From Cristatella mucedo (Eukaryota > Bryozoa > Phylactolaemata > Cristatellidae): a DNA stretch of 64,000 nucleotides. A program made the translations under genes and the position numbers. The stretch lies in assembly GCA_009760855.2 (NCBI GenBank), contig WPIO01000029.1, forward strand, positions 3,252,501-3,316,500. The letters are read 5' to 3'. Positions 2,233 through 41,124 of the stretch are shown here, one piece after another. The notes beneath the pieces are model-generated. The model had not been told where the DNA came from and did not search any database. It saw nothing but the letters and a program-made list of their open reading frames with translations. Within the stretch, counting starts at the first letter, position 1; the number at the start of each line of letters is the position of its first letter.

Positions 2233-2763
2233 GTCAAAATTTGGTTTCAGAACCGCCGCATGAAGTTCAAGAAGGTCAATTCGAACCGGAGCGATAGGAT
2301 GGGCGACGGAAAGTCCGACGCCGACTGCGGACCGGCGTCCGGCGTTTTCCACGATCGCGGGTCATTCGGCGCGGCGGCGCAGTCGGAAGCCGTCGCGGCG
2401 ACAAGAAGAGACGGCGGCGTACTGGACCCGCTTAACCTCACCGTCAAAGCCGACGGCGGCGGCGGCGGCAAAGTACTCGACAGGGCTAGCCTAAGCTACG
2501 CCGCGGCGGATCCTTACGCAGGCGCCGCGGCCGCGGCAACCGCCGCCGCCTCCGCGCAGCAGCCGCCGCAGGTGCACGGAGTCGACTATTTCTCGAAAGC
2601 GTACTCGTACGGCGCGTACGCCTATCAACCGTCCAACGCGTTCGCGCTGAGCGGAGCGCTTCCCGGCCTTCCTTTTGGCCAATCGGCGCAGCAGGAGCAC
2701 AAGATGTACGGCGGCTATCCGTCCGTGTACAACGGCTATTACGGCTACCACAAGTCCGAGTGA
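2233..2763 (+). CDS. Hox-type (ANTP-class) homeobox gene, last coding exon
   Basis: A sequence-specific transcription factor, partial at its 5' end. The exon opens with VKIWFQNRRMKFKKVN, which is homeodomain residues 45-60: the second half of recognition helix 3, with invariant W48, F49, N51 and R53. The AG just before it places an intron between homeodomain residues 44 and 45, a position used repeatedly in homeobox genes. The remaining about 160 residues are low in complexity: Gly/Ala runs, then a Tyr-rich tail containing YGGYPSVYNGYYGYHKSE, ending at TGA 2761-2763. Family assignment is uncertain. RRMKFKK resembles insect zen/Hox3, whereas KKVNSNR after the helix recalls posterior Hox proteins (KK-M/L-N-R). 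A long C-terminal tail is more usual for Hox3. EVX, caudal and labial are less likely from the residues seen. Confidence 0.85.
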   Translation, partial: VKIWFQNRRMKFKKVNSNRSDRMGDGKSDADCGPASGVFHDRGSFGAAAQSEAVAATRRDGGVLDPLNLTVKADGGGGGKVLDRASLSYAAADPYAGAAAAATAAASAQQPPQVHGVDYFSKAYSYGAYAYQPSNAFALSGALPGLPFGQSAQQEHKMYGGYPSVYNGYYGYHKSE

Positions 2764-3530
2764 GGAGCGAGAGGGAGCGCTAGCGAGCGAGCGCCACTCG
2801 CGGCCGCCGTGCGCTATCCCCGCCGCCAGCGGCGGCGTCCGCCGAGGCAGCCGACGCTGCCGTGGCCCGGCCGAGCGCGAGGCGCCGGCCGCCGCCGCAA
2901 GCGCTCGACGAGCTCAGCTCTCTCGACCTGCGCACTAGCGGCTCGGCAGCGCTGAGGGCGGCGCGCCGGCTGACGAGTGCCGCGCCGCCGCGCTTCGGGA
3001 GGGATAACTCCGGAGCACCAGAGCGAGGAGAGGCGGAGCGGACCAGGAGTGCAGCTGCTGTCCGTCGAGTATCCGTCGTCGCGCCGAAGCGCGGCCTGAA
3101 GCCGCGCGGAGGACGCTCGCCGGCTCGACGCGGCGGAGATAAAGATTGATTTATATTCGAGTCGCGTCTCGGAGCCGACGCGCGATTCAAGAGCCGCCTC
3201 ATTAGCGCGGCCGACGTCGCGGCGCTTACGACAGCGTGCTCGCGGGGCGTAACCGGCGGCGCCGAAGCGATGCGTCGCGCTGCGTCGGGTCGGCGCCGCA
3301 CTCGTTCGAGGGCGACGCCCACAGGAAGTTGCTGAGCCGCGACGCAGACAAGACGAGAGAGCCGCGAGTCCGTGCAATCGGCCGTCGGCTCGCCCGGTCG
3401 CTGCGACCCATCGTCGCGCTGCGACCCATCGTCGCGCTGCGACGCGGCGGCACGAGCGCCGCCGCATCCGACCTCGCCTTCCATTTCACCGGGAGGCACT
3501 GCTGAGAGATGCTTCATCATCCTCCCGCTT

Positions 3531-3540
3531 TCGAGAGAGA

Positions 3541-3626
<86 letters not shown>

Positions 3627-3661
3627 TAGAAAGACCAAGAGAGAGGGAGCGAGAGGAAGGG

Positions 3662-3700
<39 letters not shown>
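3531..3700. repeat. (GA)n microsatellite, compound
   Basis: Two long GA tracts (about 3550-3621 and 3666-3701) separated by an imperfect purine-rich stretch. With the (CT)n tract at 601-778 they bracket the homeobox exon, in opposite strand sense. Confidence 0.97.
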
Positions 3701-3704
<4 letters not shown>

Positions 3705-3818
3705 CAATCTGCTGCCCCTTTTCCGCGGCTCACGGGCCACGCTCGCTGCTTTCTACGGCTTCAAGCGATAGCTGCTCAAATGCGCAGCGTCACGGTTTTG
3801 GAACAATCTACTCAGTTA

Positions 3819-3824: not shown

Positions 3825-3829
3825 GAACA

Positions 3830-5079: not shown

Positions 5080-6296
5080 AAGAGGAAGAGAACTGCTCTC
5101 CTCCATGTTAACAATGACATTCTATGGGGCAACGATGGCGGGAATGTCACTGCCCTAGTTCTGCAAGATCTGTCAGCTGCCGTCGACACCATTGATCACG
5201 ATGTTCTACTTAAACGATTGAGAACAACGATCGGTCTGACAGACGAGGCACTGGCGTCATTCAAGTCGGACTTGTCCGGTCGTGTTCAATCCGTGTCATC
5301 TGGGGGTCAGGTCTCATATACGAGACGGATCACCTGTGGAGTCCTTCAAGAGTCCGTCCTTCGGCCCCTTGCTGTTCTCCATTTATACTTAACCCCTTGG
5401 AAAACTGATTAAGGCCCGTGGAATAGGATAGCACTTTTATGCTGACGATACTCAGCCATATTTGTCATTCAAACCGTCGGAATCAGCTGCAGCAACTGAG
5501 AAACTGGATACTTCCCTTGCCGAAATTCGATCCTGGGTGTCGGAAGACTTCTTGAAACAAAATGACGATAAAACCGAACTGCTGCTCATAGGACACCCTA
5601 AGCGTGTGGCTGGATTAAAAGGCTTTGCTCTTCTAATAGGTGATGATATTATGCGACCATCGCCACGTGCTCGAAATTTATGTGTCGTTTTCGACAGCTG
5701 CCTCAATTTTAAAAGCTTTATTCAGGAGACTGCTTCTATTGCTAGCCATCACGTCCGATCCCTATCAAAGATTAGGAGCTGTCCTCCGCAGTGGCTTGCA
5801 AAAAATTAACTAGCTCCTTAGTTCTGTCTCGGCTTGATCATTGTAATTCCCTTTTGGCTGGGCTGCCAAATAAAGCAGCTAGGCCACTGCAGCTGACTAT
5901 GAATATGGCTGCAAGGCTAGTCTTCAAGTCCCAGAGGCTTGAGCACGTGTCTCCTTTGCTAAAAGAGCTAGGATGGATGCCGGTTGAGCAACGGATACAG
6001 AGCGAAGTTCTTACGCGGATCCACAAGGCCCGTCACGGCTTGGCTCCTTCGTACCTAGCTAAACTGCTGCACCAGTTTCAGCCTCTTCGCGCCCTCAGGT
6101 CCTGTATGGACAATAAATTAGCTGTTCCATTCCTCCACTTAAAGACCGTTGGCCCAAGAAGCTTTAGTGCTCTGCAGGTCCTAGACAGTGGAAGCCGCCT
6201 CCACAATTCTTACGCAGCGACAACTACTTTCCTGCTGCCGACTATGGCTCATCCGGCTGTCTTGCATCTTGGCTGGAGCCAAGTGAAGAAGATGCT
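5080..6296 (+). mobile_element. LINE family B copy (CR1/L2-type), truncated at both ends
   Basis: A reverse-transcriptase fragment of a non-LTR retrotransposon, closely related to the copy at 48.6-49.9 kb. Readable blocks include a decayed [12 protein letters not shown]-type block near 5335, a degraded active-site region near 5440-5460, the KTELLLIGHPKRV block at 5572, and the C-terminal thumb region with SRLDHCNSLLAGLPNKAARPLQ near 5828. Stops and frameshifts break the frame (near 5410, 5808 and 6308). It stops short of the 3' tail normal for the family. Confidence 0.85.
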
Positions 6297-22320: not shown

Positions 22321-22347
22321 ATGGGCGCCGTAATCCGAGTTCTGAAG
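22321..22347 (+). CDS. LNPK: LNPK coding exon 1
   Basis: Nine codons, MGAVIRVLK, then donor GTACGC at 22348. Human LNPK starts MGGLFSRWR, so length, Met-Gly start and basic character agree. Phase 0 at its end. Chosen because it is the only Met-Gly exon I found upstream with a donor in the phase required by exon 2. Confidence 0.8.
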
Positions 22348-25300
22348 GTACGCCCGTCCTTATTATTTATTTGCGCTATCTTTGAAAGATGTGGCGCTAA
22401 GCAGACGCTTGCAGCTACGTTGCTGTCGTAGTTGCCTGCGAAATGCTGCAGCACTTTAAAGCGCGTTAACGACCGGAGGAGGCTTAACGTCGCAATTCGG
22501 AAGCTTCAAGACCCCCTCCCGCTTAAGATCATTCTTGCGGCGAAGAGATCCGACATTTAGAACTGAATGAGCAGCTACACAGGACAAGCCTATAGCGGTG
22601 CATTTAGCCGTCCGATCTAGCACGTGTGGGCAACCGCTCTCTCAGCTACTGTACTCACTTATTCTCTAACCAGCTCATTGCTTTATCATCTGCGCCGTCT
22701 GCTGTCTTAAAATTTCAGAATTTCAGTGTTAGTGAGCCATGCCCGTTGCACATGCTCGGTTAATGAAGAGACCTCCACTCCCCGCCCATCGCCCTTGGTC
22801 AGCCTATAGATGGTGTTAGACTGCCAGGCAAGGCTACAAAGACGGAATCGAGGCCTTCTTGACTCGAATTGCACAGTCGCTGCGCTGCGGCCGTTTTAGG
22901 TCACGACCGCAATGGAGCCTGCAGATTGAACATAGTAAGCAAGTGAGCTAGCCTCTTTTGAAACCGCGTCAGCTTAGCCCATGTACTTATTACTTCCTTT
23001 TTAAACGTTAGCATAGCCTCTTTTGAAACCGCGTCAGCTTAGCCCATGTACTTATTACTTCCTTTTTAAACGTTAGCTACGTCTGATGAGGCTCGTTATA
23101 GTTTCCTTCAAGAGTGCTTAGATAGGTATTCCTGCATAATCAATGTAATGAATGTCCCTCGCGGGGATCAACAAACCGGTGAACGGCAACCTGTGTACGG
23201 TTCTATGTGCTAATGCGAATCGCCCGTAAGGCAAGGATGAAATGCGGGTACAATTTTTTTCTCAGCCTATTTAACTAGACAGGCCTTAGCTAAGGAGCTT
23301 CCAAGTATGAAACCTCGATGCAGCCTTCTCGTCTGATTTAGATCCACTTCAAATCTTGTTGCCTGTCGTGTTTTATGCCCTTAACCATTTAGTCCATCTT
23401 TAGGCTTCAGCAGTTTTACTTTTTGCGGCTCAAGCATCAGATCTTTGTCGGAGCCATATTTTGCTGGCTGCCACCAGCAGTTTGCCATAGCTGGTTGACA
23501 TAGCTAGCCGTATTCATTGCAAAGGGCATGCCAATAGCCGGACTATAGCTGTTGAAAGTGCAATAGAAAAACGATGCTTATTGTACCACACCCAAGCCCT
23601 TGTGACGTCGCAAGGGCTCGAAGTTTGCAGATATCTTTACTTGGATTGTATGCTCCTTTTTAGGAGGTTTGTCTAACCTGCTTTGCTGACAGTGGCTTAT
23701 ATGCAGCTAGCATTTTGTGAACTTATTGCACGGGTAGCCTTTATTTTGTTTCGAAAAGTCACACTACGTATTGCGATGCCATGGACGGTTACCAGGTGGT
23801 TTTAGAGCATTTTTAATTACTGCCTGTCGAAATGGGAAAGTAGTTGTCAGTCACCTATGGTTTTGAGACACTCAACTCTTGATTATGCCATGGCATGTCC
23901 CTCTTTCTCCCTAGTGCTGCAATATCTCATTAGGAAGTTTAGCCTTAATTACATCCGGCTGGCGGTTTGTCCGCATACTTTCTACTGCTTCTTGAAACAG
24001 GTCTTGGCTGGGTAGCCCTGCTCCTCTCTGCTCTTGGCTACTTGCGATATGAGTGACGACAAAACTGGGATGGCTGTTGATCCGACAATTGATAACTGCA
24101 ATTGCTGTTCTCTCACTCATCTCTCTCCTCTCGGTTTTAGCAGATTGACCTATTTATACTGTTTCCTACTTACAAGGTCATGATGATAATCGAACACTTG
24201 GTTCAAGGGGAGGCCAATTTTTTTTTCTTTCATTGAGCTTTGCCCCTATTCGTTACTCGAAATGCCTATTCGATGTGGGTGTGCCGATATGATAGATCTG
24301 TGCGTTTAGCTGTGCCTCGAGTCAACCTTAAATCTCTTGGAAACTTTGCCTTTAGTTCGCATGCTCCCAAACCCTAGAACTCTCTCTAAACTGACGTCAT
24401 GCCATCCCCTGACTTACGACATTTAAAAGAAGCTAGAAATGCACCTTTTCCTCACAACATTTGCTGGGTTAATGTGAATTGTCCTATGTATGCTTACATG
24501 TGCTGATACAGTGCATGTTGTCACTAACCGTACTGACATGCTTCCTTTACAGCATATGGACAATGCCTAGAAAGGGATTTAGTTCTCTCGTGATGCTATA
24601 CAGATGCATTATTATTATTAATATATGCCATGTCCTTGTCCAGGTTTTCCCGCAATACCTCGTCGATACCCTATTGCCTGCATGTTGCAAGGCAGCCTGC
24701 GTGCATACATGTTTGCATTGAGGCTATCACTTTTGTGTGCATCATTGGAGCTGCATTTTTTACATGGTGTATATATGCCTAATGTTCTTAAATATCCGTT
24801 TTCCTTCGGAACCAAGGTAACTTTAAAAAATGATTGCTTTGTCTTACGGAGCTCCAGGTCTTTAAGATGCCACCAGAAAACGAGATTTGTATGAAGAAGT
24901 AATATTGATAGAGACAATATAGGTGGCACCTCATTTTACTTATCAGGTGGAACAAGACACAACACTTGCTTGTGTTGCTAGTTTGTCTCACTTTTTTAGC
25001 TTTTGACAGTCACAAATATTGAAGCATATTGTCTTTCAGCTGTAAACATGCTGTGACCTTTTCATCGATTTCTTGCTTTGTTTAATACCCGTAGAGCCTG
25101 TGGAGCTACGGGTCTCAAGCTCCCAGAGCCCGTGCTCTGGAGCCAGATTTGATGCTTACACGTGATTGTTGCTGGGAAGCGCCAAGCCCTAACGTTAAGA
25201 TGTAATGTAATGTAATGTAATGTATCGCCGTCTGTAACTCCACAAAGTCATAAAGACTATGCGAGTGTTATGCAGGAGAGTTTTGCGCACTCGCAGCCTA

Positions 25301-28300
25301 AGCGGCATTCGGTTGCCAACAGACTTTGTCTCAAGCAACAAAGAGAAAGTGGGAAGCATAGCAGAGTCGGGGGAGTAGTTGAGGTAGTGAGTAGCATGGA
25401 AGTAGCAGCTCAGGACTGCTGAAAAGGATGAGCCATAGTCGGCAGTAGTAGAGTAGTTGTCGTTGCATAAGAATTGTGGAAGCGAGTTCCACAGCCTAGG
25501 ACCTGCAGAGCTAAAGCATCTTCGGCCAACGGTCTTTAAGTGGAAGAATGGAACAGCTAATTTATTGTTCATGCAGGACCTGAGGGCACGAAGAGGATGA
25601 AACTAGTGCAGTTCAGCTAGGTGTGGAGGAGCCAAGCCGAGGCGGGCCTTGTGGGTCAGATGCTTTCCGAATCGGTGATCTCTGACACATCCATGAAATA
25701 TTACTGCCCAGCATTTAAATGTCTCCTCACTGAAATAGCCCCTGAAAATTGTGACTATATCGAAAACCAGATGAAGCATCAGATGCCCTCAGAGCAAGCT
25801 CAGTTTATTCACCCATTTTGCCCCTAGTAAGCCAGCCCACGTGGCAGCTTGCACAATCTCTCTCCATCAATATTGCTTCCTTATATCACACTAACCTTCA
25901 TAGGGTGCTGTGTTGGCCTGGAATTTGTAAAACATTGTAATTTTCTTGGCTAAATCTTGAATCTTGGACGGTCACCTGAAGATACCTCCCCCAGACTTGC
26001 TTGTAGTGATGCAAATGAGCATGCAGCATGCCGATGTTGGAAGGTATACAAACGTAGAAGAGCTTGGGGGCAATGTATTCTTAAACGTTAAAACGTGTTT
26101 ATCGATTATTTGTTGCAGAGATCAAAGAGCACTGTTGAAATTCTAGAAGACATCGACAAGGTCAGATCGAAGTAGCAATTGCTCCTGTGTGCAGTTGCAA
26201 GCCTTTTGAATGGATGAATTGGATGTGTGCCACCTTGTCCATCTGCTTCCTTGCATTTTGAACATCTTTTTTTTTCAGAGCATGCAACTATGTGCATTTG
26301 ACTTGAGTAGTGCTTTGTTTGTTAGTACTGTTTCCAGATTTTAGGCAATAGAATCAATATCTGTTGCTCTATCGTGTGTCATGCAGAGTGCCGGCTACAC
26401 CACTTCGTGTTTGACTCATAGGAAATTGAATTACGTCGAAAGCTTCGTCAACATAATCTACACCTTCAAAGAAAGTATGCCGTGGGCCTGGTGCTCTACT
26501 CGGCGATGGTCTACATCGGCGTTGGAATCTTTTTGGTTGCCTACTATTTTCCCACTCTTCAGTGGATGCATCGTATTTTTTGTGCGATCCCGTTCCTGCT
26601 ATTTCCTCCACTGTGAGTAGTACAGCATTTGAACTGCTTGCAGTGTTAGTCCGAGCAGCGGTACTGGCAATGTTGTGTTAGTGAGCCGTGATGACACACT
26701 AGATAAGGTGGTTGCTTTTCACGACCTCGGTCCCGAGGTCGTGGGTTCGAATCCTGCTATGGGCGATTCTTTATTGCCGCTGCAAGCAGTGGTGATAGCC
26801 GTAAAGGCTCTTCTGTTGCTATGCAAAAAAGGCTGTTAAATTAGCAAGCATTTTGTGTGACCGCCTTGCTTGTCGTGTTCTGCATAGTGTGTCTTGTAGT
26901 GCGCCTGGGCAGTATGACTGTAAGCATGGGGTGCTCTCGAGCTGCCTGCGCGAGTGGCTGGAAATCGGCGGCCGAATGCCGTTGTCACCTGCCGGCCTGA
27001 GAGGGAGCAGAGCTAGTGCTTCGTTGGTCAGTGCCCCTTGCTGTTCGATATTCTATCCGATGATGTGCTCTCGTGAGGTCTGATGTCGGTCGCCAGGGCA
27101 GATGCTGCTAGCTGTGATTCTGCAGCATCAATTGTGATATACAGGCTACCGTGCTCGTCGTCGTCGTCCTCCTCTTATCAGGCATCCCGTGCTTCCTGCC
27201 TGTTCCTTTATCTTCCTTGAAACCAGTCCGATGCGACTTCTGCCCGGTCGGCAGTAGTGGCCTGCTCTCACTGCTGCTGGCAGCTGCCTCGTTACTTCCG
27301 TCGGGAGATCTGGCCGCTTGATCGTCGTCTGTCTCCTCCTGCTCCGATTGTCGGCCGGTTCTTCTTGCTGCCTTGGTTTGCTGCCAGTTTGCCCGCTCCT
27401 TCCTGTCATTCATCTGCTTCTTGCCACATATTCAACCCTTTTGTTTTTACCGGTCTCCTCACAACTGAATGACGTGTGCCATTTTGTATCGCTCAGCATC
27501 TTGGTAAGGGCATGGTCGCTCGCACTGCTTGAGCACTGCTTGACCTCGATTGGCCCGAATGCGCTTGACCGAGTTGAACATCCGAAGCAACCTGGAGCAG
27601 AAGGCACCCGGCATTCACCTTCGTACAGCTATCTTCATTTGACAATCATTTGTGCCCGACACCGAATTGTTGTGCAGCCTGTGGGGCTCCTCCAATTGCC
27701 GCGCTGTGGGGCTCTTCCTCCACTCCACAATTCCCACAACTTGTTGGCAGCTGTGCGCTTTTTCAACGTGCTGTCGAAGTTCTGCATAAGCAAGTAGTAG
27801 CTGCTCTGGCAAGCAGCGTATGAGCACGCTTCACGCGGGCATTGGATTTGCTGCCGTCACCGCGTGGGGCGCTCTCCTTGCAGTCTCGAGGTGATTATTC
27901 GCTGCTGTGCCAAGGCCAAGGTTAGCCGTGCAGACGTATTGGCGAGCCTCTGCTCCTTGGTTCATTCACAGTAGCACTACCTTTTAGACTCTCCGCACAT
28001 GCCTTTTTCGTGCTGATGCCCCGTGTGCCTTCACGTGGTGATGCTTCGTCGCATGGCCCTGTTGCCCCCGACTTTCATGTAGGTCCTCCTTGGCTTCAGC
28101 TGTGAGTGTTATTAGACTGCTTTCTCTTTCCCCCGTCGGCCATGCTTCATTCGACAATTTTGGTTTCAGGATATGGATGCTGAGGAAACTTCTGCACTGG
28201 TACTTCGTCAGGCGTATCGAAAACAACGGTTAGACCCTTAGGCTGACGAGCTGCAACGGCTGCGCTCACTGCAAGCCGTTGCATGACAGCCGCCTTAGAA

Positions 28301-31300
28301 TGAGCATCAGTTGGCCGCTTCTCTTTTCTTTGCAGATTCAGCCCTTCAGGAGCTCAAAGAGAAGAAGAAATCGCTAGTAAGTTCGCTTGCAAGTCGGGGT
28401 GGGGGCAGAAACTGGCCTGCAGGCATTTGGAGGGGCGCACACACACACGCGCACACACACACACACGAGTGCAGTCAGTGCTCAACAGGTTGGCCTGCCG
28501 AGTAACAGAATTACTAGAAGTAGAATCTCTCCCGTAAGTTTTTAATCACATTTCTCAGCTGCATGCAAAAAAAAGATTTCATAGCCAGTCAGCAGCGAAT
28601 CCGGACTACCGGCTCTCAAGAAAGTGCATAGCAGATTGATATAGCACTGTAATAGCCAAGAGACACTTGCCTATTTACACTACGAGTGACTGGTTATAGC
28701 AGAATATTTATCATTCTTCAGCAAGTATATATTCAATGAGCATATGCTCAATCTTGATATTCAAGGGAAGGCACGTAATAATGTTTACTTTGAGCATATA
28801 TAGTCCTGAACTTGGCTGTTGTGTATCGACTTAAACGTGTTGTCACTCACTTTTAGGTCTCTTCATTATCTGGCTCCAACATATCTATCAGAACTACTTC
28901 CCAACCAGGCTAGGCATCGCACCACCCATTCCTCTGGCTCAGATCGTTTAGCTGTGTCTCTAGCCTACCTCAAATCCTTTGGAGACCTCGACTTTAGTTC
29001 GTATGCTCGTAAATCTTCGAACTCACTCCTACTGACTTCGCATCCCCTGACTTGACGACTTTTGAAAGGAAGCTACAAGTGCACCTGTTTCTCGAAGTAT
29101 TTGGTGGGTCCTTGTGATTTGTCCTTTGTGTGCTATTCGTGCTGACACCGTACATGCTACCACTAACCATACTTTACATGTTGATACTATGAATGTCACC
29201 TCTAACCAACCATGGTATGCTTTGTTGACGTCATGCATGTTACCACTAACCATTTATTCATGCTTTCTTTGCAGTGTATGTAAAGTGCCTAGAAAGAGAT
29301 TAATTTCTCTGACGGTGCTAAACAAACTTATAATTGTCATTATTATTATTGTGTCTTGATTGGGTTTTGGGTACACTGAAAACATGTAGTATTTGTATTT
29401 GCTGACGAGCAGTTCTCTGTGTATTTTCGTTCTATGATTTTGCTTATTTTTTCATATGCTAGCACGAGCGTCGTATACCTATCTGCTCATCCTGTTCCCC
29501 TAAAGCAGAGTCCTCCTCAGATTTTTAACATTGGATATCAGCACGAGTTTTACACAAATCCGTTGTATGTCTTTTCTTTTTGACTTGGCAAGTTTGAATC
29601 AAAACTGTTTCTCTATTCACGTTAGTGGACGTGCTGAGTGCCTTCCTAATTTCAGATTAATGAACTAGAGGTCAAGCTGTGCATTGGAAATTGCTTTTAC
29701 ACAATTCATGTGTATAAAGTTATGTAGAAATAATGTGCATGCAGCCACAACTTTTGTTACATCCCGAAAATGATAAATTCCTGTATATTTCTGCAAAACT
29801 GATGTTAAATATGTTTTCAAGACAGTGCCCTCTCCAAGTTCAACAACTTACTTAGGAGAAAGGTTAAGTATACAAAAAGTGTGAATATACAATGAGAAAA
29901 ATCTTCAGTTTGTTTGCTAAAAAAAGTCTGGAAAAACGTCAAGCCAAAATTGTAATCTCCATAGCATCCAAAGTAGGTCTTGAACATTAATACTGAAAGT
30001 GAAACTAGGATAACTGTTTCCTGTAGTAAGAGGCATCCAGTGCTAATCATTGCTTGTTTTCAGCATACTTGTGCATCTGCACGTAGCAGTTACCGACCCA
30101 GAAGATCGCCTGCTCCCGTAGTTGTGACTAAACCGGGCTCTAGCTTATTTTTATGGGCAAATGATCGCATTTTCTAGTATGTCTTAGAAGTAAGTTGTAC
30201 AATGCCTGTTCACTCTGTTTATAGTTTGAGATTTTTGAGAAATAGTTCTCCATTGCTATTAACAATTTTACTGAGCATATGTAAATCTGGTTTTGCACAA
30301 ATCCATCAGAGATCATCAATTTTGGGGGCCCAACAACATGCATGACCACTAACATAGGTGTGGCGCTTTTAGTATTACATGTAATCGGCTCCCTTTTACC
30401 TCCAGTAAAGCTTTATTCCCAACCACCATAATTGTATTCCTGGTGTATAATAAAAAATAGCATTTAAACATCTTGCATTGTTATGGACAATCACACTCTG
30501 ATGTGAATGCTAAAAAAGCTTGCTTAAATTTGTGCATTGTGTTCTCATTATTTCTAATTATTAGTTATTTCTATCAGTTGCGAAGAAGCTCCATCTCATG
30601 TTTGTGATGTGATCAGATTAAGTCATACCAATTATCATGGCAACTGTGTGATTAAGGTCATAATGATGTCCAGCTAAAGTGGTGAGAACTTCTGATCCAG
30701 TGATAAGCTAATAAATCTAACACGACACTGGTGAATTCATGTCTCAATAGATTGGTGATTGTGAACAGCCGATTTTCTTTTTAATGTAGTTAGAAGAGGT
30801 CATGGAAAAGGAAACATACAAGAAAGCAAAGGAAATTCTGGAGAAATTCGATCCAGAACAATTCAAAAAGCTAGAGGTAGGATTTTTTTCATGCCCGGCA
30901 CTTAATTAACATGCTGCAATGCTTAAAACTGCAGCTTTGTCTTTGTGGTGTTGTCTTCCACCTTTGCCGAATTAAGCTATGTTTATTTAATTGCTATTTC
31001 ATTGTATTATGTTAGGGGAGCGAGTATTGTGAACTCGGGTGCCCTTGTAAAGCTAGGTAATTGATGAGAGTTGGTAATGCGCGGTAGCTGCTTGCTTATT
31101 TAATACAGAATAACCATAATAATAACACGTCATTTGTATAGCACTATAAGAGAACTAAATCTCTATGCAGGCACTTCACAACTGCACGAGAAGCAATAAC
31201 CAAGGGTTAATGACTTGCATGGTATCATGCCTTAGGCAAGCAAGCAAAGGCACACAAGTATCAGGCAAGACTGCCTTGCTAAAAGACGTGAGGCGACACT

Positions 31301-34300
31301 TAGGGCCATCAGTTAGCCTGGCTAGTTACATGCCCTGAGTCACAAGGAGGTCAGCACGCAAAGCACATGGTAGCAAAACAGATAAGTACACTAGGGTTGG
31401 GTAACCTAAGCGGAACAGGCTTGTCTGTAGCCTATACTTAACACGATGCAAAAGGCACTGCTGGTTGTCGCAAAAGCTTTAGGTGAGTATTGTACTGATG
31501 CTGCATACGAACTGAAGGACAAGAAACCATCTGCTTTGTTCTCGAATTTCAGCCCTCCCTCGTGTCCTTCAAGCCCTGCCGATAAACGCAGACCGACAAT
31601 CGGTCGCCATCGTGTATCCGGTAGTGTGGTACAGCCTAGTGTGCAGTTGAAATAGTTGTTTATCTTCCACCGCTTAATGAACTAGCCACCACTGAGTGAA
31701 GCAGCTATGAGCAGCATCATCGATCGGCCAAAGAGCATTATTTTGCCTGCCTCTCAGCTGACGTGTAGACAGCTAACAAAATAGAAGACGAGTTTGGAGG
31801 AAAAGGTAGAAAAGAAAAGAAGAGTTATCAGTCTGGGTTTGATGGTGTCTAGTCTTGCCTGTGACAGGCTGCTCGGATCAAACCACCACTTCCGATTGAC
31901 GGCCGATGTCAGACCGAGTCCGGTGACTTTGTACTCGCGGTTCTTCTCACGTCAGCCAGGGATGAGGACCGTGAGAACTTTTCCTTTTTATTGAGCTGCC
32001 AGTTTTTTGCAAGCATAGTTTCACTTGGGATCTATGTGTGCACCAAGCAGACAAAGCCTTGTCAGACATTCGTTTGTTGGTTCCCATTTTCCTTTATTTT
32101 TGATGCATGGGTCTTAATGCACACATGCAATGGTTTGCATGCGTTGCTGTAGCTATTCAACTTAGTGCTATTTATGTGCATTGATGGCTTTCTTGGCAGT
32201 GATTTGACAATGTTTGTCTGTAGATCCGTCTCACGTATTCATGCCAAGTGACATTGCCTTACCAGCATGAGGCTGAACAGTGCTGAACCGTCTGAGAGAA
32301 TGGCAAGCCTGGGCAGGCGATCAGTGCACTCCGAGGGCCGTGATAATCTGTACCCAGGTTTCTCTCTCCACTAAGCAACAGCACTGCGCATGTCTTAGAA
32401 CACCCCTGCCATTCTACTCTCATGTTACAACCCCTCCACCTAGTGTTGGGCTTTTGCCCGAATCTGTCCGGCTCATCCTTAAGTCAAACTGGTGCCCACC
32501 ACGCTACACACTGTCTAGATTTGTACTTGAAGCCCGTAAAAGTTAACCGCATTTTTGCATTCATCTGTCCTCTCCCTTTATCCGCCTTCCGCTTCGTGAT
32601 GTTGTGAGGGGTATGCTTATGAACTGGGTTGCTGCTGCACTGAGCAGTGCAGTATGAGCTGTGCTGAGTGCGCTATGAGCCGTGCATTCTCTCCGGTAGG
32701 CCCTTTATGATGGAACCGAGCGCATCACCTCGCATTGTGGTTTCTTAGCTTTCAGGTGGCGGCAACACACATGGCCGAAAACACTGTCTTGTCCTGTTCG
32801 CACCGGGACACTAGTTGCAACTAAGCAAACCATGGCTGGCTTTCTGACCCTGTCTTGTGCCACCCACGTGATGCTCGAAGCCAGCGCCTTTAGCCTCGTT
32901 GTAGTGCATGCTCCCTCCCTCCCTCCCCCACCCCGAGGGCAGCAAAGCCATTGGTTGTGCTGCCGTCGGCTCGGCACTGCCTTGCACTTCGGCACATTTC
33001 ACTCGTGCGCTCATTTGCTGCAGAATGCCAACATCGAAGAATCGGCAGGCATTCCTCTGTCGACTCCGCTTCGGCTGCCGCCCGGAACAGGTATACGAGC
33101 AGCAGCAGCATTGCCATTGCACTGATGATGCCCCGAAGCAAACTCGCCGACCGAAGTAGCGATGGCATGCAGAGCATTGCTTTGCTGCTCAGTTAAGCTG
33201 CCCAGTGGCTCCCAAATTGAATAAGCCTTGGTGAGAAGGGCGGCAGCAATGTGGAGGAGTAGTAGACTGATCGCGAACAGCCGCTGGCCTGATCGGGGGT
33301 AGTCAGACCGTGTTCGTGTCATCAGTAGGGGGCAGCTTGACCGGCACAGGGGCACGGTTGGCCAGCGATGGGGTGTTTGTCGGTGGGCCAGAAGTCACTC
33401 GCTGCATCGCTGCTGCGGGTAATGCCAAGTGCCGCGCTCGCATTTGCAGATCTTAGGCGGAGACCAGTCGGTGGTGGCGGTCCTCTGCAGCAAGCGGTTC
33501 TCTCCGCTCCGCAGCTGGCATCGACGCCGTCTGCCCCACAACTCTCGCAGATGCAGGTTCGGAGCATGATGACTCCGATGCTGCCTCCTCACCTGCAAGG
33601 TCATCCAGGTAAGAGTTTTCCCACGTTTCTGTTACATATCTGCTTGGTGCCTGCTGTGTCTGCCTCTTTTCAGAGACGTGTGATCTGCTACTGAACCGTA
33701 TCTGTAAAGAAGCTTAGAAGCAAGAGAAAATCCTGGATCGTGGCGTTATCGTAAGTCTTGTTGCTGTCAAGTCAGCAAAGAACATGCCTGTTAGAGCTAC
33801 ACTGCATTACTGAGTTGCACACATTGCTAGTAAATGCTTCGATGACTAACGTGTGACTACATTTATTGACCGTGTGTGACATCTGCCGAGTATCACTGTG
33901 ATAGCTGCGCTTCCTAGACTTTGCACTTTCTGTTGTCGTGTTTTTTGCCAAGTCTTAGCACCGCAGTGCTCCAGGCTTCAACTTCGGCTAGTTAGTCGTG
34001 ATGCCGCTTGATTGGATTTACTTCACTTTCACATTGCTGTTCCGGTTACGAAAAGGATAGGTTTTTCGTAAACCTGTCCTGTCTACATTTAAATGTCACT
34101 ACTAGCTTTGCGCGCCTTGTTTTTCTCGTGATTCGAATGGTTCCAGGTTATTCGTTTGCAGCTTTTTTCATTTTGCGAGGCCATGCCACAAATGCAGGTG
34201 ATGGCTTGGAAATACGACTTGCAATCGACCGACTTGATTGCATGTTAGTCTTGCAATTACTTTAGGTTATGGATTTGCCGTCTTTCCACTCTATGACACT

Positions 34301-37300
34301 AATCCTTCATGACGTCGTACCTGCAAACTCGGCTTTGATGTGCCAGCCATTGTGCTGGCGTGTGCAGTGCTCAGACCAGAAATCGTGCTTAGCTTTGCCT
34401 GCCCATCACTGCATCGTAAGCAAACGTCGTGCTCTCATGTTTTGGATGTGTGTAGATTGCTGCTGTGGTAGCTGCTGCATTACCATCGCCATGTCAACCG
34501 TAAGGCCTGTGATCAGCAAAGGTCGTATTGCATCGACGTTTCAGGGTTCCAGCAAGCACCTCGACTGCCTATGCCGAGACACGTGCCTCCAAGGGAACGG
34601 TCGGCTATGGACAGGCTTGTCGAGTATCTTGTTGGTGATGGACCAAACCAGCGTTATGCCCTTATCTGTAACCAATGCCTCTCACATAATGGAATGGCCT
34701 TAAAGGAGGAGTTTGAATATCTCAGTAAGTGATCTAGCAACTTTCTGAGCTACCAATCGGCTGTATTGCTCGTCAAACTGTTGCATTGTGTAGTATGGTA
34801 GCATTCGTAGAGTGGTCACTCTGGCTTCCTCTGAGACACTTTTTATGTTGTCTGTCAGTCTTTTGTTATAGCTGCTTAGCTCTTCATTATAGCAGAATGC
34901 TTTCGGCAGAACAGTAGTACATACTTTTTTCTTTTTTTACTGACTTTCATTATTTCTTGACATGGTGACTCGCCGATTTTTGGTTGGACTTTCCACAGAA
35001 AGTGCAAAATGAAGTCAGTTTTCATATTCTTATATGTGCTGCTTTGTGTGGCCCTGCCCAGTACTTGAACTTGTAGTCAGCCATTCATTCTGCCAGAGCC
35101 TAAGGTTCCGAGCTCTCTTCTTAGACAACACTGCTACTGTGAGGAACGCCTGAGTAGTTATTGAGGCGTACCCAACGATGTGGAAAGCAGTGCCGTCGTA
35201 TGGGAGCCATCAAAGAGTAGTGTATGTCTACTGTTTCTTAGCTCGAAAGATAGAAAGTGAGTTCACTGCTTTGAGAGCTTACAGCTGAAGCATTTAGCTT
35301 GGTATCCCTTTTTTGGACTGGAAGCGCCATTGCAGCCCATCTAATTGTATGTATGCATGTATGTGTTTATGTTTGTATGTGTGTATGTCACTGTGTTAGA
35401 ATTGTGGAAGTGAGTGTCACAATCTAGGACACTTGGAGCAAAATTATCTATGACCAACAATATTTAAGTAAGAGAATGGAGCTCAGTTAGTGTCCTAGGG
35501 CACCAGGAGGTTGTAACTAGGAAGTGGTTGGTGTTATGTATGGAGGAAGGAGCCCAGCTATGGCAGACGTTATATGTTAGAATTCAGAGTAAGAATTCTG
35601 TTCTCTGGGAGCCGTGGCAGCTATATGAATCGCCTTAATGGCGTTTTTTAGGCAGCCCTGCCATTCCTGAGGTACTTAAGTCTAAAGACAGCCAGGAAGT
35701 CAGGACAATGCCAGACACAGCACTCTGTGAGTAGCCCCTGATCATGAAAAAACTTAAATCGACATCAGGCAGTGGAAATGGCCCCTCGAATACAACATGT
35801 AAATGTCAGGCTGTCAAAGAGGATGCCTAAATTAGGAGCACCCTACGATGATGGAATCATCTGGATCAACCATCATCGTTAACGTGACTCATACTGTCTG
35901 CACCATGCACTAATTCGTTACTTGAATTAATTAACTGAAACCGAAATAGTCTAACCCTGTGAGCGCGTTGTGACCTTGTATGATCACCGATTAGACAATG
36001 GTGCAACGAGCCACTCACCCGCAGCACCCGATTTTTCTAAATGCAGTCATCGTGTCGATAGACCATGCTAGTAGCTTCTGGACTCACTTTGTTCAGACCA
36101 AAATTTGCGTTGTACCGTACCGTAACGTAACCGTTGGTGACCATCCTGCCAACCGGCTAGCCGGCAGAAGCATAGCCAATCGGCACAAGAGTTAATTTAG
36201 GACTCGGTGGTATGCTTCACATTATGTGTGGAGCACTAGGTTCCATCGATATGATTTATTTGGCAACGAGCCAATATAAGAAGCTAGTATGCACACGAGG
36301 CCAATCAATGACGTGTAGTGCTGTGCTGCAATCCCAAGGTCTACAATGTAAATAGGCTGCCGTAACTGTCACCTGGCCTCGATAAAGCAGGAAGCTTTCG
36401 GTGGCCAATAGGCTGTCATTTGTCAGGTGAAGCGGTCCTTATCGATTCATTCTCAGGTCCAAACCAGTCGGCTGTGGAAGGATTCTTTGCCTGGCCACAT
36501 GCGGAAAGCCGACTCTTTGCTGCCAACTTTATATAATAAAAATATAATTCGTTTATATAGCGCCCCAAGAGAACTTCATCTCTATTCAGGCGCTTCACAT
36601 ATGCCTCAGGGCTCGAGCCCACGACCTCAGCCAGACCTTGGTCGGGGCGAGCACCTTATCCGCTGGGCCAAACCAGCTCGGCAACTTTGTGACCACTACA
36701 CTATACCAACATTGGCTACTAATTGGTCTTTTCTGTTTCACTAGAAGTGATAAGCCGAAATCGGCTAATAGTCACCGTGTATCACCGGGTGACCTGTTGC
36801 CGATTTGTGGTCACTGATTTTCCAGGCAGGTCTTAGCCATCCATGCTGTCCCCACTCACGACTTACTAGACCTTGGATTTGGTCTCATGCAGTGATAAAA
36901 TAAATTAACAATAGAACGAAAGACGCCCTATAGCTGAAAACGCATGCAGAATCAAAGAATCTTTACCCTTGACCCTCTTTTCTCGTGACATTGGTGTTCT
37001 TGTTTTCGGGTTGAATGATTTGGGTCTTACTTTCGAGTAGGATTCGACGTTGTGACCCCCACCCCCTTAGTTTTTTAAGATTCTACTTCTCGAGTGGTTC
37101 CTGACCGCTGTCTTTGTTCTCTTTTGACTCATTAGACATTTGCTCTCTCCGAAGCTAGCCAAAGTCATTGCTTCGGCTCACACTCGGCTTCTGTTGTGGT
37201 CTGTGCTAGTGTTTCCACTTCCGCTATGCTGAAGCCCTGCGGCAGCCTGCTGTTGCCACCCTTCTTCCTTAGCAACCATCTATTCTTAGCCGCGCTCTTC

Positions 37301-40300
37301 TTACCTGTTGCCTCTGAAGTTGTTGTGGCAGGGTTGTACTCGGCTCGGTCACTCAGCCAACGCTAATTATCAATGCCACAAATGTTCTTTGAGTAGTTTT
37401 GTCGACCGACGGATTTGTTCGAGCACCATCAGTTGACGGTTGGCCATTTCATTGGCAGGTTTCAGGTGCTGCTATTGCTACGGTGTAAATCACGCCAGAA
37501 AGCAGCGGCCCAACGCTCCATTGCTGGAGCTGAAGCCGGCGCTCCGCGAGGCGGACAGCTCGCATGATGAAGAGCTTGACGACGATGAAGGGGCCATCGC
37601 CGGTGCTGCCAACGGCGCATCCGAGTCGGTTGAAGAAGACTTTGGCAACGATGGTGATGGGGAAGGTGTAGTGAGTGAGGACATTGCACACGGTGGTGCT
37701 ACGGATGAGCAGGGTAACGATGAAGCAGGTGAGAGCATGTGTGCACATGTGTACAGGCGCCAGAGCACAATCGCACTCGTGTTGGCGTGCACGTGTTTGC
37801 CAGTTTTCGTCTGTATGGATGCATGCTTGTGTTTTGGTAAATGTGTGCATCAGTTGCTGCTGTTGCTGCGACCACTCCTGTCGCTGGCTCTGTTCTATGC
37901 CACCCATGCCACTGCTAGTGTCTACATCAGGGGCACCCGTTGCTTCTTGCCTTTGTACGTGGCCATGTTAAGGATCGGTCGTTTGGGGGAGGGGCTAGGC
38001 CGTCAAGTCGACTTACACTCGCTGCTGCATCGTGCACCGAGTGCTTCAGCCTCACTCAGAAAGTGAGATGGAGAGAATCGGAGACAGCTCGACTCCTCCT
38101 TGTGCAATCTCGGGCAGAGTAGAGAAATCTCGAGCGCCCCACTGCAAGATGGTCAGCACTGATCCGTGTAGCTGCGCTGATGATGCACTGCTCTGCGTCG
38201 GTATAGAGACTGAGCATGGAGTGCAAGCCCCTGTGCTTTAGGCTTTCCCTTGGTGTTGTTTTTGCGCAATTAATGCATGGAGTCTGGGAGATTTGAGCAC
38301 GAAACCGGTCTCAGTGTCCGTGCAATAATGGTTAGTGGGCATCTTCCTTAGCAGAGCCGGTGCTTTTTTAATCCTAATACAACCGTTAGGACGTCTTTGT
38401 TGTCGGTCTAGTTAGTAGACATCCTTTAAAAAGTGTGCTGCAGCCTCCGACCCTCCCTCGACGGAGCTGCACTCTCATTCGGTAGCTCAACTGATTAGGC
38501 ATGTGCTCCCCCCCCCCGATCGCAGATGGTTTGACTCCGATTGGGAAAGTTAGCCTGGATCTGTCCTCAGAATCTCGACGTAGTAGTTATTTTAAACCGT
38601 GACCGAACTAAGCACAGACCATGTCGAGCAGGTTGTGCTGTGTGCAGGGCATCATTAAAGCAGCTGAAAACTGTTATGCTTTGAATGCAGTGGCAAGTCT
38701 TAAATCTTAACTCTTATTGCTAGCTTACCCTGTAGACAAGATGCCACAATGCAGCCCCTTGTTATATTTGAGACCTCTTTAACAGATGCAGTCCTCCGGG
38801 AGAGCTTAGACCTACTACTGCCTGTAGGCCTTCGCTCTGTCAACGATTGGTCAGCTGCTCCTTGCCTCCCTACTTCCTATAGCTCGGTGCCCCCAGTTCG
38901 TCCTGCCACTTACTCCCTGAATTAGTTCAAAAGTAGGCTGGAAAGCTTGCCTTTTTGTTATCATCTTCAGGGTTGATGGATTTGATCACTGACCTACATT
39001 AATATGACAGTCCCTCCGGTCGTAGTGCATGTACTTTCATTGTCCACTATTGTACACCTCAGTTAATCGTTGTTAGTTTGCCTGGGCTGCATTTTTGTCC
39101 ATTTGGACGAGCTTTGGCCGTTGTACTTCTTCTTAAAGGCAATATGCCTTTTACGATTGTCAAGTGGCCGTGCAACCCACTGGGTTTTGCCGTGCTGTGC
39201 AAGCCCGTATACATCTATTCATTCACTAATGCACAGGCGGACAAGTCGATCAGCTTAAAATGTCGATCTCCTTAGATATCTTTGGTGTACCTCTGATATC
39301 AGCCTATTATCTATGAGTTGACTTTGCTGTGTCGAATGCAGCAGGCCTCGGTAATGGGACTCGGCGAAATTATTTTCTAGCTTCATCGGGGATGTTCCAT
39401 GTGTGTAACAGATAAGAAAATGCTTTTCTTGAAACTATTAGTGACAAGTCTGCCAACCCAAAAGCCTAACAACTCTTGGTGAGCGAGCCTTGCTGCCTCG
39501 TGCCACCATCAGTTGGGCATCGTATGAGATGCCCAAGCTGGTCAGACGTGGCAGTAATAACCTTGGCAGTCAGCAATGGCGAGGCAGGCAGCCATGTGAG
39601 TGTACCCTACTGTCCACCACCAGGCTTGTCACACTGCTTCTCAATGGACTAGTTGTACCAAGGTTTTGAGTGAAGCCGCTTTGTTCGTACTTGCAGAATG
39701 TTCAATACTGGTTCTCTGTGTGCTGTTTAATCGTATCACCCCCAATATGTAACGGCTCGCCGATTTGGCTAAGAAGATTTGACCTATAAATGCAAAAGCC
39801 GTGATAAGTCAACGGTCGTTATGCTGGAGAGATTTTCGTTTTGACAATTTGATTTATGCACATGATCAGTGCCCGAAATTCTACATCTTGTGCAGCAAAG
39901 TAGAATTAGAAGCATGGCTGAAATATGGGAGCAGTCGGTGAATTGGCAGGGGGAGGACATTGACGTTAGCAGTCTCTAGCGAAATGAGCTGCTCATCTGT
40001 TACCCTCAGTCGATTGTGAGCAAGGGGAGGTTGATACTGCTTCAGCAGTTCAATAAGGTACAGAAGTGACAAGCCATGGAGGATCTTCAAGAAGTTCACC
40101 GCCGTAGAAAGATTTTCACATGAGCAGTGTTGCCGCCTCTCTTGTAAGACTGCTAGTTGTCGTTTGGGGTCTGGGTTAAAGACATATTGCTTTGTGTAAT
40201 TGTGTCCTTTTCGAACTAGAAGTGCAGCTTTTGCTGCAAAAGCTTAGCTGCTTCTTTCCGTTTATGCTTCCTATTATAAATCGACGGCAGCATATGGCTT

Positions 40301-40692
40301 TGACTCGGTCCGCACCTGAATTAATGTGGGACGTCGTTGCAGATGAAGCTCTGTTAGAGCAATGTCTGCAACCTTTTGCTCTTTGTCAGTCTGCAGATAT
40401 AGCGCTGTGGGCATGCCACACTGCTGAGGAGTCATGCAAGCGCCAGACTCGATTGAATTGAATGAGCTTGTGGTTCGCTTGCCCTAGCCTTGTTGACCGA
40501 GCTGGTTTGCTTGCTAAGACGGCGGTTATTTTCTTAGCCTTTGGTGCACACTTGACCACACGATAGCAAGCCGACCCGTGGCCATGTAGCTCTTTCCAAT
40601 TCTCAGTGGCAGGAAGGTTTGAATGGTCACCGTCAGCAGCCGTCTGCTTTCCTAACTCGAGACGGATTCCCGTTCTTTTCGCTAGAGCAGAG

Positions 40693-40768
<76 letters not shown>

Positions 40769-41124
40769 TCACTCCGCTGTTTAGTGGAGCTGAACGCCCG
40801 ATTGAGCATCCTAATAAACTGTTCAGTTCAGTTAGTGGTCAGCATGCCAGCATTAACGACAGTGACCACTAGCCTTCGGTGTGTGAGAACACTGCTCTTG
40901 AAGCCCCGATGGGCTTCTAAGGCTGTGTTCATTTTCTTTTCTCTTTGCGTCGGTTCGCACGCGTGGTACTGGTTATGCTAACGAGCTAGCTCCACTTGGC
41001 TGAGTGGCCAGTATCGTGCTTCGACTGTTATCTTGTAGTTGCTTCAGCCGCAGGAAGCGTTGAAGCTCGACTCCCTCAGGTGACCGAGTCAGACGGAAGT
41101 GCAGATGCCTCGACCGTCAACTGA
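22321..41124 (+). CDS. LNPK: Lunapark, ER three-way-junction protein (complete gene, 11 coding exons)
   Basis: Lunapark sits in the endoplasmic reticulum membrane and stabilises three-way tubule junctions. The spliced frame is 1194 nt (397 residues; human LNPK is about 428), and all ten junctions agree in phase. Order: MGAVIRVLK, with Gly2 as a potential myristoylation site; STVEILEDIDK (human STVEVLESIDK); a basic helix; two membrane segments (about 42-66 and 75-100) with a short loop; a conserved helix with LEEVMEKETYK, identical to human at those residues; a proline/glutamine-rich linker (about 150-240); and the Lunapark zinc finger with Cys266, Cys269, Cys288 and Cys291 (YALIC..C, FRCCYC). 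An acidic C-terminal tail follows. The segment that gives the family its name (LNPARK) reads VNHARK here. Introns hold LINE and SINE copies. The final exon is the least certain part. Confidence 0.95.
22949..23077. repeat. Perfect tandem duplication, period 65 bp
   Basis: The 64-bp block at 22949-23012 recurs without visible change at 23014-23077. It begins TAGCCTCTTTTGAAACCGCG and ends TTTTTAAACGTTAGC. Identity of the two units suggests a recent event (or an assembly artefact). Confidence 0.97.
24290..24620 (+). mobile_element. LINE family A 3' fragment in LNPK intron 1
   Basis: Starts in the C-terminal coding end (NLKSLGNFAFSSHAPKP-like) and runs through the 3' UTR to AATGCCTAGAAAGGGATTTA and (ATT)n. 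Confidence 0.8.
25201..25662 (-). mobile_element. LINE family B 3' fragment in LNPK intron 1
   Basis: Antisense to LNPK. The 3' terminus carries four to five ATTAC pentamers (25201-25223 on the plus strand as TGTAA repeats). Its coding part reads NNKLAVPFFHLKTVGRRCFS near 25510-25570. Confidence 0.88.
26119..26160 (+). CDS. LNPK: LNPK coding exon 2
   Basis: Fourteen codons, RSKSTVEILEDIDK, phase 0 at both ends. Acceptor TTGTTGCAG; donor GTCAGA. Matches human RTKPSTVEVLESIDK, the conserved segment before the first coiled region. Confidence 0.93.
26422..26612 (+). CDS. LNPK: LNPK coding exon 3 (first membrane segment)
   Basis: 191 nt, starting after GACTCATAG and ending before GTGAGTAG with two bases of a split Leu codon. 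It encodes the basic helix EIELRRKLRQHNLHLQRK, then the hydrophobic YAVGLVLYSAMVYIGVGIF, then the loop and the start of membrane segment 2 (IFCAIPFLLFPP). Corresponds to human residues from EIQALEEFREKNQRLQK onward. Confidence 0.94.
26684..26856 (+). mobile_element. SINE1 copy in LNPK intron 3
   Basis: tRNA-like head with a near-consensus box B (GGGTTCGAATCCTG at about 26743), the middle GGGCGATTCTTTATTGC, GTGATAGCCGTAAAGGCTC and an AGGCTGTTAAATTAGC end. Same sense as LNPK. Confidence 0.88.
28170..28228 (+). CDS. LNPK: LNPK coding exon 4 (end of second membrane segment)
   Basis: 59 nt between TTTGGTTTCAG and GTTAGA. It completes the split Leu codon, then encodes IWMLRKLLHWYFVRRIENN, matching human IWSIRTVIIFFFSKRTERNN. 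It ends one base into an Asp codon. Confidence 0.92.
28336..28376 (+). CDS. LNPK: LNPK coding exon 5
   Basis: 41 nt between TTCTTTGCAG and GTAAGTTC. Completes Asp, then SALQELKEKKKSL, matching human EALDDLKSQRKKI. Ends in phase 0. Confidence 0.93.
28438..28467. repeat. Short (CA)n microsatellite
   Basis: An imperfect CA run in LNPK intron 5, just downstream of exon 5. Confidence 0.85.
28815..29352 (+). mobile_element. LINE family A 3' fragment in LNPK intron 5
   Basis: Reverse-transcriptase C-terminal text (NVLSLTFRSLHYLAPTYLSE) followed by the family A 3' UTR with CATGCTACCACTAACCATAC-type repeats and the tail AAGTGCCTAGAAAGAGATTA ending in (ATT)n. Confidence 0.88.
30790..30876 (+). CDS. 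LNPK: LNPK coding exon 6
   Basis: 29 codons between TTAATGTAG and GTAGGA, phase 0 at both ends. LEEVMEKETYKKAKEILEKF then DPEQFKKLE. LEEVMEKETYK is identical to the human protein. This exon gave the first firm identification. Confidence 0.97.
31115..31190 (-). mobile_element. LINE A/SINE2-type 3' tail in LNPK intron 6
   Basis: Antisense tail: AATAATAACACG, then TATAGCACTATAAGAGAAC, then AAATCTCTATGCAGGCACTT. Flanking sequence to about 31530 may be a decayed LINE A body but is not clearly readable. Confidence 0.6.
33024..33090 (+). CDS. LNPK: LNPK coding exon 7
   Basis: 67 nt between CATTTGCTGCAG and GTATAC. Encodes NANIEESAGIPLSTPLRLPP then GT, and leaves one base of an Asp codon. Starts in phase 0 as exon 6 requires and hands over the phase needed by exon 8. 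The joined text PPGTDLRRRP corresponds to human RPGQEIRQRT. Confidence 0.82.
33450..33608 (+). CDS. LNPK: LNPK coding exon 8 (linker)
   Basis: 159 nt between GCATTTGCAG and GTAAGAG. Encodes the low-complexity Pro/Gln/Ser linker (LRRRPVGGGGPLQQAVLSAP and on to MLPPHLQGHP). Linker composition rather than sequence is conserved in the family. Confidence 0.87.
34545..34724 (+). CDS. LNPK: LNPK coding exon 9 (first half of zinc finger)
   Basis: 180 nt between CGACGTTTCAG and GTAAGTGA. Contains MDRLVEYLVGDGPNQRYALI then CNQCLSHNGMALKEEFEYL, almost identical to human. Supplies zinc ligands Cys266 and Cys269 of the Lunapark zinc-binding domain. Confidence 0.97.
35395..35690 (-). mobile_element. Decayed LINE family B fragment in LNPK intron 9
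   Basis: The plus strand has TTAGAATTGTGGAAGTGAGT and following text that parallel the antisense copy at 25460-25650, but with many substitutions. A much older copy than the others. Confidence 0.55.
36532..36681 (-). mobile_element. SINE2 copy in LNPK intron 9
   Basis: Read on the minus strand: GAGCTGG, then TGGCCCAGCGG (an exact fit to the pol III box A consensus TRGCNNAGYGG), then GGTCGTGGGCTCGAGCCC (box B region), then the shared LINE A-like tail GAGATGAAGTTCTCTTGGGG and an A/T-rich end. Best-preserved SINE2 in the window. Confidence 0.88.
37459..37728 (+). CDS. LNPK: LNPK coding exon 10 (second half of zinc finger, acidic tail)
   Basis: 270 nt between TCATTGGCAG and GTGAGAG. FRCCYCYGVNHARKQRPNAP supplies Cys288 and Cys291 and replaces the family hallmark LNPARK by VNHARK. 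It continues into an acidic, disordered tail (SSHDEELDDDEG and on to DEQGNDEAG). A longer frame reads through the donor but loses the acidic character. Confidence 0.95.
37729..41053 (+). other. LNPK: LNPK intron 10 (3.3 kb)
   Basis: Contains poly-C (about 38510), a decayed minus-strand LINE C-terminal fragment at about 39885-40110 (reads KILHGLSLLYLIELLKQYQP) and a (GA)n microsatellite. No further exon was recognised. An unseen exon here cannot be excluded. Confidence 0.55.
40694..40765. repeat. (GA)n microsatellite
   Basis: An uninterrupted GA run of about 36 units in LNPK intron 10. Confidence 0.98.
41054..41124 (+). CDS. LNPK: LNPK coding exon 11, terminal
   Basis: 71 nt after acceptor GCTTCAGCCGCAG. 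It completes the split Gly codon and encodes SVEARLPQVTESDGSADAST then VN, with stop TGA at 41122-41124. Ser/Asp/Glu-rich composition fits the acidic C-terminal tail and the phase is exactly as required, but the sequence is not conserved enough to prove it. Confidence 0.65.

What the first reader, a model, noticed from the sequence alone, without database searches (positions are those of the whole stretch)
2233..41124. Hox-type gene next to Lunapark, same orientation
A Hox-type homeobox gene ends about 19.6 kb before the first codon of LNPK with no other gene recognised between. In vertebrates LNPK sits beside EVX2 and the HOXD cluster and shares its enhancers. If this homeobox is a Hox-cluster member, the linkage would be an ancient bilaterian trait or a retained fragment of a cluster flank. 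EVX is not visible between them. The linkage is seen directly; its evolutionary meaning is inference.
Basis: partly seen in the sequence, partly recalled or inferred. Interest (0 to 1): 0.78.

Follow-up and report, generated by a model that had tools for sequence, protein, structure and literature searches.

The report
Lunapark gene beside partial Hox cluster
In a spiralian animal, probably a flatworm, the membrane-shaping gene Lunapark sits next to the front end of one of two partial Hox clusters, whereas in vertebrates it sits at the back end, so the link is real but not the vertebrate layout.

Summary
The window has the last exon of a Hox-type homeobox gene X (2233-2763, +) and, 19.6 kb downstream on the same strand, a complete Lunapark gene (22321-41124, 11 exons, 397 aa). 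Between them a six-frame Pfam scan finds only one weak retroelement fragment. The window lies on a 4.67 Mb contig. Upstream, same strand, lie a Hox4-type gene (31 kb) and a Lox5 gene (141 kb), so this is a spiralian Hox cluster; another contig carries Post2-, Lox5- and Hox4-type genes in the same order. The interpretation needs correcting: LNPK lies on the 3' (anterior) side and reads with the Hox genes; in vertebrates it is a 5' flanking gene beside EVX2. The two EVX-like genes here lie on other contigs. Which Hox gene X is stays open: the first half of its homeobox is not visible, and 2,500 bases left of the window read N. LNPK was found once though many homeobox genes are paired. A rearranged remnant of an old Hox-LNPK neighbourhood seems somewhat likelier than chance; comparison with other animals, not available here, would decide.

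The parts
2233..2763 (+). last coding exon of gene X, Hox-type homeobox: homeodomain positions 45-58 (VKIWFQNRRMKFKK) plus C-terminal tail, 176 aa, stop at 2761-2763
   Evidence: acceptor ...ccattgtag before GTCAAA
22321..22347 (+). LNPK exon 1 (start codon, MGAVIRVLK)
26119..26160 (+). LNPK exon 2
26422..26612 (+). LNPK exon 3, first hydrophobic segment and most of the second (by eye)
28170..28228 (+). LNPK exon 4
28336..28376 (+). LNPK exon 5
30790..30876 (+). LNPK exon 6, charged helix-like stretch (by eye)
33024..33090 (+). LNPK exon 7
   Evidence: without it the frame breaks
33450..33608 (+). LNPK exon 8
34545..34724 (+). LNPK exon 9, first half of the zinc ribbon (CNQC)
37459..37728 (+). 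LNPK exon 10, second half of the zinc ribbon (CCYC) and an acidic stretch
41054..41124 (+). LNPK exon 11 with stop codon
2764..22320 (.). interval between X and LNPK; no Pfam match other than one weak reverse-transcriptase fragment
   Evidence: six frames, E up to 0.01
5363..5587 (+). RVT_1 fragment (retroelement remnant) inside the interval; E 0.0017, 18.6 bits, below the cut-off of 29.6
   Evidence: residues 867-941 of the second frame

Best explanation
LNPK is the first recognisable gene beyond the 3' (anterior) end of one of two duplicated, partial spiralian Hox clusters (Lox5 - Hox4 type - X - LNPK, all on one strand). X is the 3'-most Hox gene visible there, most likely an anterior-group gene (Hox1-3 type). 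LNPK itself makes the usual ER-junction membrane protein. The neighbourship is most likely a rearranged remnant of an old Hox-LNPK neighbourhood: the two kinds of gene stayed close while local inversions changed side and orientation and EVX moved away. Shown: LNPK and Lox5 identities, order, strand, distances, EVX-like genes on other contigs. Inferred: Hox group of X, common ancestry of the linkage, any shared regulation.
For: Lox5 with KLTGP at positions 64-68 and a Hox4-type gene on the same contig and strand. One LNPK match in the genome. No domain-bearing gene found between. My arithmetic, not a call: 6 visible Hox loci with 20 kb on each side make 240 kb of 572 Mb, so a randomly placed gene falls there with probability about 0.0004; LNPK is an immediate HoxD neighbour in vertebrates (PMC4778128 and PMC2080641, passages).
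Against: Opposite side and, by recall of the human map, opposite relative orientation to vertebrates. EVX-like genes lie on C55 and C507. ATP-synt_C, the family of ATP5MC3 (a vertebrate LNPK neighbour, recalled) but also of other c subunits, has 0 of 7 matches on C221. GST_C_6, a family that holds metaxins (recalled) but also rang in 4 of 14 prokaryote controls, has 2 matches, on C376 and 5 Mb from the Hox genes on C665, none on C221. Contigs are not chromosomes, so these results exclude only closeness within 4.67 Mb. The chance figure was made after the fact. No other animal genome could be compared.
Confidence: 0.5

Rival explanations
1. Independent neighbourship: rearrangement brought an unrelated single-copy gene next to a broken Hox cluster, and the likeness to vertebrates is coincidence.
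For: Wrong side and orientation; EVX-like and ATP-synt_C genes not on the contig; cluster split over two contigs and with few genes visible; in planarians Hox genes do not cluster (PMC4815179, passages), so flatworm genomes reshuffle a lot.
Against: Low chance of landing within 20 kb of a Hox gene (my arithmetic, about 0.0004 for a named gene).
Confidence: 0.4
2. X and LNPK are linked by sequence, but X is not a Hox gene proper (another ANTP-class gene with an intron after position 44), or X-LNPK is joined to the Hox contig by a scaffolding error at the N stretch.
For: Only 14 homeodomain residues are visible; the first half was not found in 150 kb upstream or in the whole-genome searches; 2,500 bases read N between X and the Hox4-type gene. 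Mox-, Cdx-, Dlx- and Dbx-type homeoboxes here also end near position 44/45 (names by recall).
Against: KIWFQNRRMK-KK is Hox-like: the best solved-structure matches are HOXA9, Antp and HOXC9; X reads the same way as the Hox4-type and Lox5 genes and lies where an anterior Hox gene is expected.
Confidence: 0.1

Closest known systems
Vertebrate HOXD - EVX2 - LNPK flank
   Same: LNPK lies directly beside a Hox cluster
   Different: Here LNPK is on the 3'/anterior side, same strand as the Hox genes, and the EVX-like genes are on other contigs; in tetrapods Evx2 and LNP are 5' flanking genes (PMC4778128, passages)
Cichlid HoxDb remnant (lnpb - hoxd9b - hoxd4b - mtx2)
   Same: A reduced cluster still flanked by LNPK
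   Different: lnpb is upstream and mtx2 downstream there (PMC2080641, passages); here LNPK stands on the side where mtx2 would be, and the family that holds metaxins has no match on this contig
Reduced Hox sets of Platyhelminthes (PMC4815179 and PMC5831810, passages)
   Same: Recognised here: one Post2-type, two Lox5, two Hox4-type and X; no Hox5, Antp, Lox2 or Post1 recognised (these four are reported absent in flatworms)
   Different: Genes lie in order on two contigs, not scattered as in Schmidtea; no Hox1, Hox3 or Lox4 could be recognised as such

Membership tests
Lunapark (LNPK) | lunapark zinc ribbon (PF10058) with two CxxC pairs | tested here: met
   E 2.7e-19, 69.1 bits, residues 246-294; CNQC and CCYC
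Lunapark (LNPK) | N-terminal Met-Gly, two closely spaced membrane segments, coiled coil after them | tested here: inconclusive
   seen by eye in the 397-aa model; no transmembrane or coiled-coil predictor run
Hox gene (gene X) | full Hox homeodomain | not testable with these tools
   only positions 45-58 visible; the first half was not found in the visible sequence
Hox gene (gene X) | Hox-type recognition helix KIWFQNRRMK | tested here: met
Hox gene (gene X) | member of a Hox cluster, same strand | tested here: met
   Hox4-type at 3223651 and Lox5 at 3113969 on C221, +; an N stretch of 2,500 bases lies between X and Hox4
Hox gene (gene X) | hexapeptide upstream of the homeodomain | not testable with these tools
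   upstream exon not visible
Lox5 (L003, L005) | Lox5 parapeptide KLTGP at positions 64-68 | tested here: met
   both genes read KKE(H/N)NIAKLTGP; definition in PMC5431905, passage
Hox4 (L004 on C221, L002 on C665) | homeodomain closest to Hox4/Dfd | tested here: inconclusive
   against 11 recalled references: L002 HOXB4 92%, Dfd 90%, Scr 88%; L004 HOXB4 87%, Scr, Dfd and Antp 85% each; no tree built
Vertebrate-type HOXD-EVX2-LNPK linkage | LNPK on the posterior (5') side of the cluster | tested here: not met
   LNPK is 3' of Lox5, Hox4-type and X
Vertebrate-type HOXD-EVX2-LNPK linkage | EVX between Hox and LNPK, or nearby | tested here: not met
   the two EVX-like genes are on C55 and C507
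Vertebrate-type HOXD-EVX2-LNPK linkage | shared enhancers | not testable with these tools
   needs expression or chromatin data

The most novel reading that the evidence does not exclude
LNPK was already a close neighbour of the Hox cluster in the bilaterian ancestor, and this animal keeps the neighbourship on the other flank after local inversion, perhaps because Hox control elements lie in or near LNPK introns.
Probability: 0.4. Interest if true: 0.65.

Novelty: new variant of a known kind. Interest (0 to 1): 0.42.

Why it matters
If LNPK and Hox were neighbours in the bilaterian ancestor, the regulatory partnership known from limb control at HOXD would have a much older base, and LNPK introns in invertebrates would be a place to look for Hox enhancers. 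A case on the opposite flank would also show that closeness, not order, is what was kept. If it is chance, it is a warning against reading deep meaning into a single neighbour pair.

Tried and rejected
Rejected: LNPK plus X as the vertebrate EVX2-side flank (side, orientation, EVX location). Rejected: the two Lox5 and the two Hox4-type genes as alternative haplotypes; they differ at 5% and 12% of homeodomain residues and, within the 3.2 kb loci compared, align only around the homeobox. Rejected: X as a recent copy of another visible gene (next best match E 0.2). Not decided: Hox group of X. Of its 16 residues 45-60, recalled zen and HOXA9 match 14; recalled lab, Dfd, Antp and AbdB and the window genome's own L004, L005 and L037 match 13, which does not discriminate.

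Led nowhere: mir-10 search (nothing rang in this genome or in the controls, so uninformative); Rfam scan of 140 kb of C221 gave only two 28S rRNA matches, and of the window, L024-L028, L002 and L003 gave none. Mitochondrial code test for flatworm origin: COX1 found on C688 with 11 TGA inside, but its letters could not be fetched. Pfam scan of 49001-63999 in six frames: one RVT_1 and three Atrophin-1 matches, all below their cut-offs, Atrophin read as low complexity. 41125-49000 and the LNPK introns were not scanned.

Papers: no invertebrate case of LNPK beside Hox turned up in ten searches. Of the six that bear on LNPK, 55, 99 and 100 were listed in full (8, 4 and 1 papers); 10, 34 and 50 listed 30 of 144, 20 of 195 and 20 of 54. 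PMC7815833 was opened (its LnP is a statistic) and PMC10506793 (no hit in the main text). Subscription papers are not held, so this is weak evidence of absence.

Full report
What was checked. The window is positions 3252501-3316500 (+) of contig C221 (4.67 Mb) in a 572 Mb assembly of 688 contigs. I rebuilt LNPK by hand from splice sites: 11 exons, 22321-41124, + strand, 397 aa, no frame break. The lunapark zinc ribbon scores E 2.7e-19, and a whole-genome search with that family gives one match, this one. The homeobox exon, here called X, runs 2233-2763: 14 homeodomain residues from position 45 on, then a tail of 162 residues. Between them lie 19,557 bases in which six-frame Pfam scanning finds one weak reverse-transcriptase fragment only; a gene without a Pfam domain would escape this.

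Is X in a Hox cluster? A homeodomain search of the whole genome gave 91 matches (a lower bound: 150 of 167 candidates scored), of which I read 49. On C221, + strand, there are two complete homeoboxes upstream of X, at 3113969 and 3223651. The first carries KLTGP at positions 64-68, the Lox5 parapeptide (PMC5431905, passages read). X follows at 3254733. C665 carries in the same order and strand a posterior gene (11633496; 67% to recalled HOXA9 and AbdB; the label Post2 is by recall), a Lox5 (11746971) and the Hox4 type (12041927). The animal is therefore a spiralian outside Gnathifera; KLTGP is reported from lophotrochozoans and flatworms. The small recognised set without Hox5, Antp, Lox2 or Post1 fits Platyhelminthes (PMC5831810, passages). 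That last step is inference.

Which Hox gene is X? Open. Its recognition helix fits Hox in general: the best solved-structure matches are HOXA9, Antp and HOXC9. The first half of its homeobox was not found in the visible 150 kb upstream. Whole-genome searches with Hox3- and Hox1-like queries gave no further half that scores like a Hox gene; several weak matches in those lists were not read. The 2,500 bases directly left of the window read N, either withheld or an assembly gap, and the missing exon may lie there. By order (3' of Hox4) an anterior-group gene is expected. An identical 14-residue helix in insect zen (a Hox3 derivative, recalled) fits, but so few residues cannot decide; HOXA9, a posterior gene, does as well over 16 residues.

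How the linkage compares with vertebrates. In tetrapods Evx2 and LNP are 5' (posterior) flanking genes of HoxD (PMC4778128, passages); in cichlids lnpb is upstream and mtx2 downstream of the HoxDb remnant (PMC2080641, passages). Human LNPK reads against the HOXD genes (recalled). Here LNPK is 3' of the cluster and reads with it. Two EVX-like genes are on C55 and C507 (first halves 69% identical to the query each). The family that holds metaxins (GST_C_6, not specific; it also rang in 4 of 14 prokaryote controls) matches on C376 and at 6.62 Mb of C665. ATP-synt_C matches, which include ATP5MC but also other c subunits, lie on other contigs (0 of 7 on C221). So an intact shared flank is excluded within this contig; contigs are not chromosomes, and wider linkage is untested.

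Chance or descent? Six visible Hox loci with 20 kb on either side cover 240 kb of 572 Mb, so a given gene lands there by chance with probability about 0.0004 (my arithmetic). That speaks for some inherited closeness; the wrong side and orientation, and the absence of the other flank genes tried, speak against. I put inherited but rearranged linkage at 0.5, independent neighbourship at 0.4, and a mis-join or a non-Hox X at 0.1. No other animal genome was within reach, so this weighing is inference.

Duplication. Many homeobox families are seen twice (Lox5, Hox4 type, EVX-like; by eye also Barx, Emx, Islet, Nkx2.1, POU-III, Meis and Irx types; names by recall), which suggests a whole-genome duplication. 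LNPK was found once, so a second copy was probably lost; whether it once lay beside the C665 cluster is unknown.

Function. LNPK most likely stabilises three-way junctions of the endoplasmic reticulum, as in other animals (established for the family, recalled). X most likely is a DNA-binding regulator of body-axis identity. Whether they share control elements is not tested.

Noticed in passing
L021:1928-2680 (-) = C221:3221928-3222680: Fragment of 28S ribosomal RNA (two Rfam LSU eukarya matches, E 1.1e-32 and 4.8e-12) about 1 kb upstream of the Hox4-type homeobox.
   Followed up: no
C74:112605-194490 and C566:5842-15612: Thirteen half homeoboxes on the minus strand (10 on C74, 3 on C566), most about 4.8 kb apart; looks like a lineage-specific tandem expansion. 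Only one was read (C74:194490), somewhat Cdx-like by eye.
   Followed up: partly
own genome: Many homeobox families occur as pairs on different contigs, which suggests a whole-genome duplication.
   Followed up: partly
C665:11633496, 11746971, 12041927: Second partial Hox cluster, Post2 type - Lox5 - Hox4 type, same strand, over 409 kb; Hox clusters of flatworms are reported as disrupted (PMC5831810, passage), so kept order would be of interest if this is a flatworm.
   Followed up: partly
C221:3250001-3252500 and the stretch ending at C665:11632500: Stretches that read N upstream of homeobox exons; unclear whether withheld or assembly gaps.
   Followed up: no
window 5160-5590, 41900-42700, 48715-49494, 54229-54378 and others: Several decayed non-LTR retroelement pieces (reverse-transcriptase-like by eye, weak RVT_1 matches), one in a 259-aa open frame at 48715-49494.
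   Followed up: no
C166:4375626-4376390, C83:2826-3735, C549:2641741, C299:634220: Further COX1-like pieces besides the match on C688; probably mitochondrial DNA copied into nuclear contigs.
   Followed up: no
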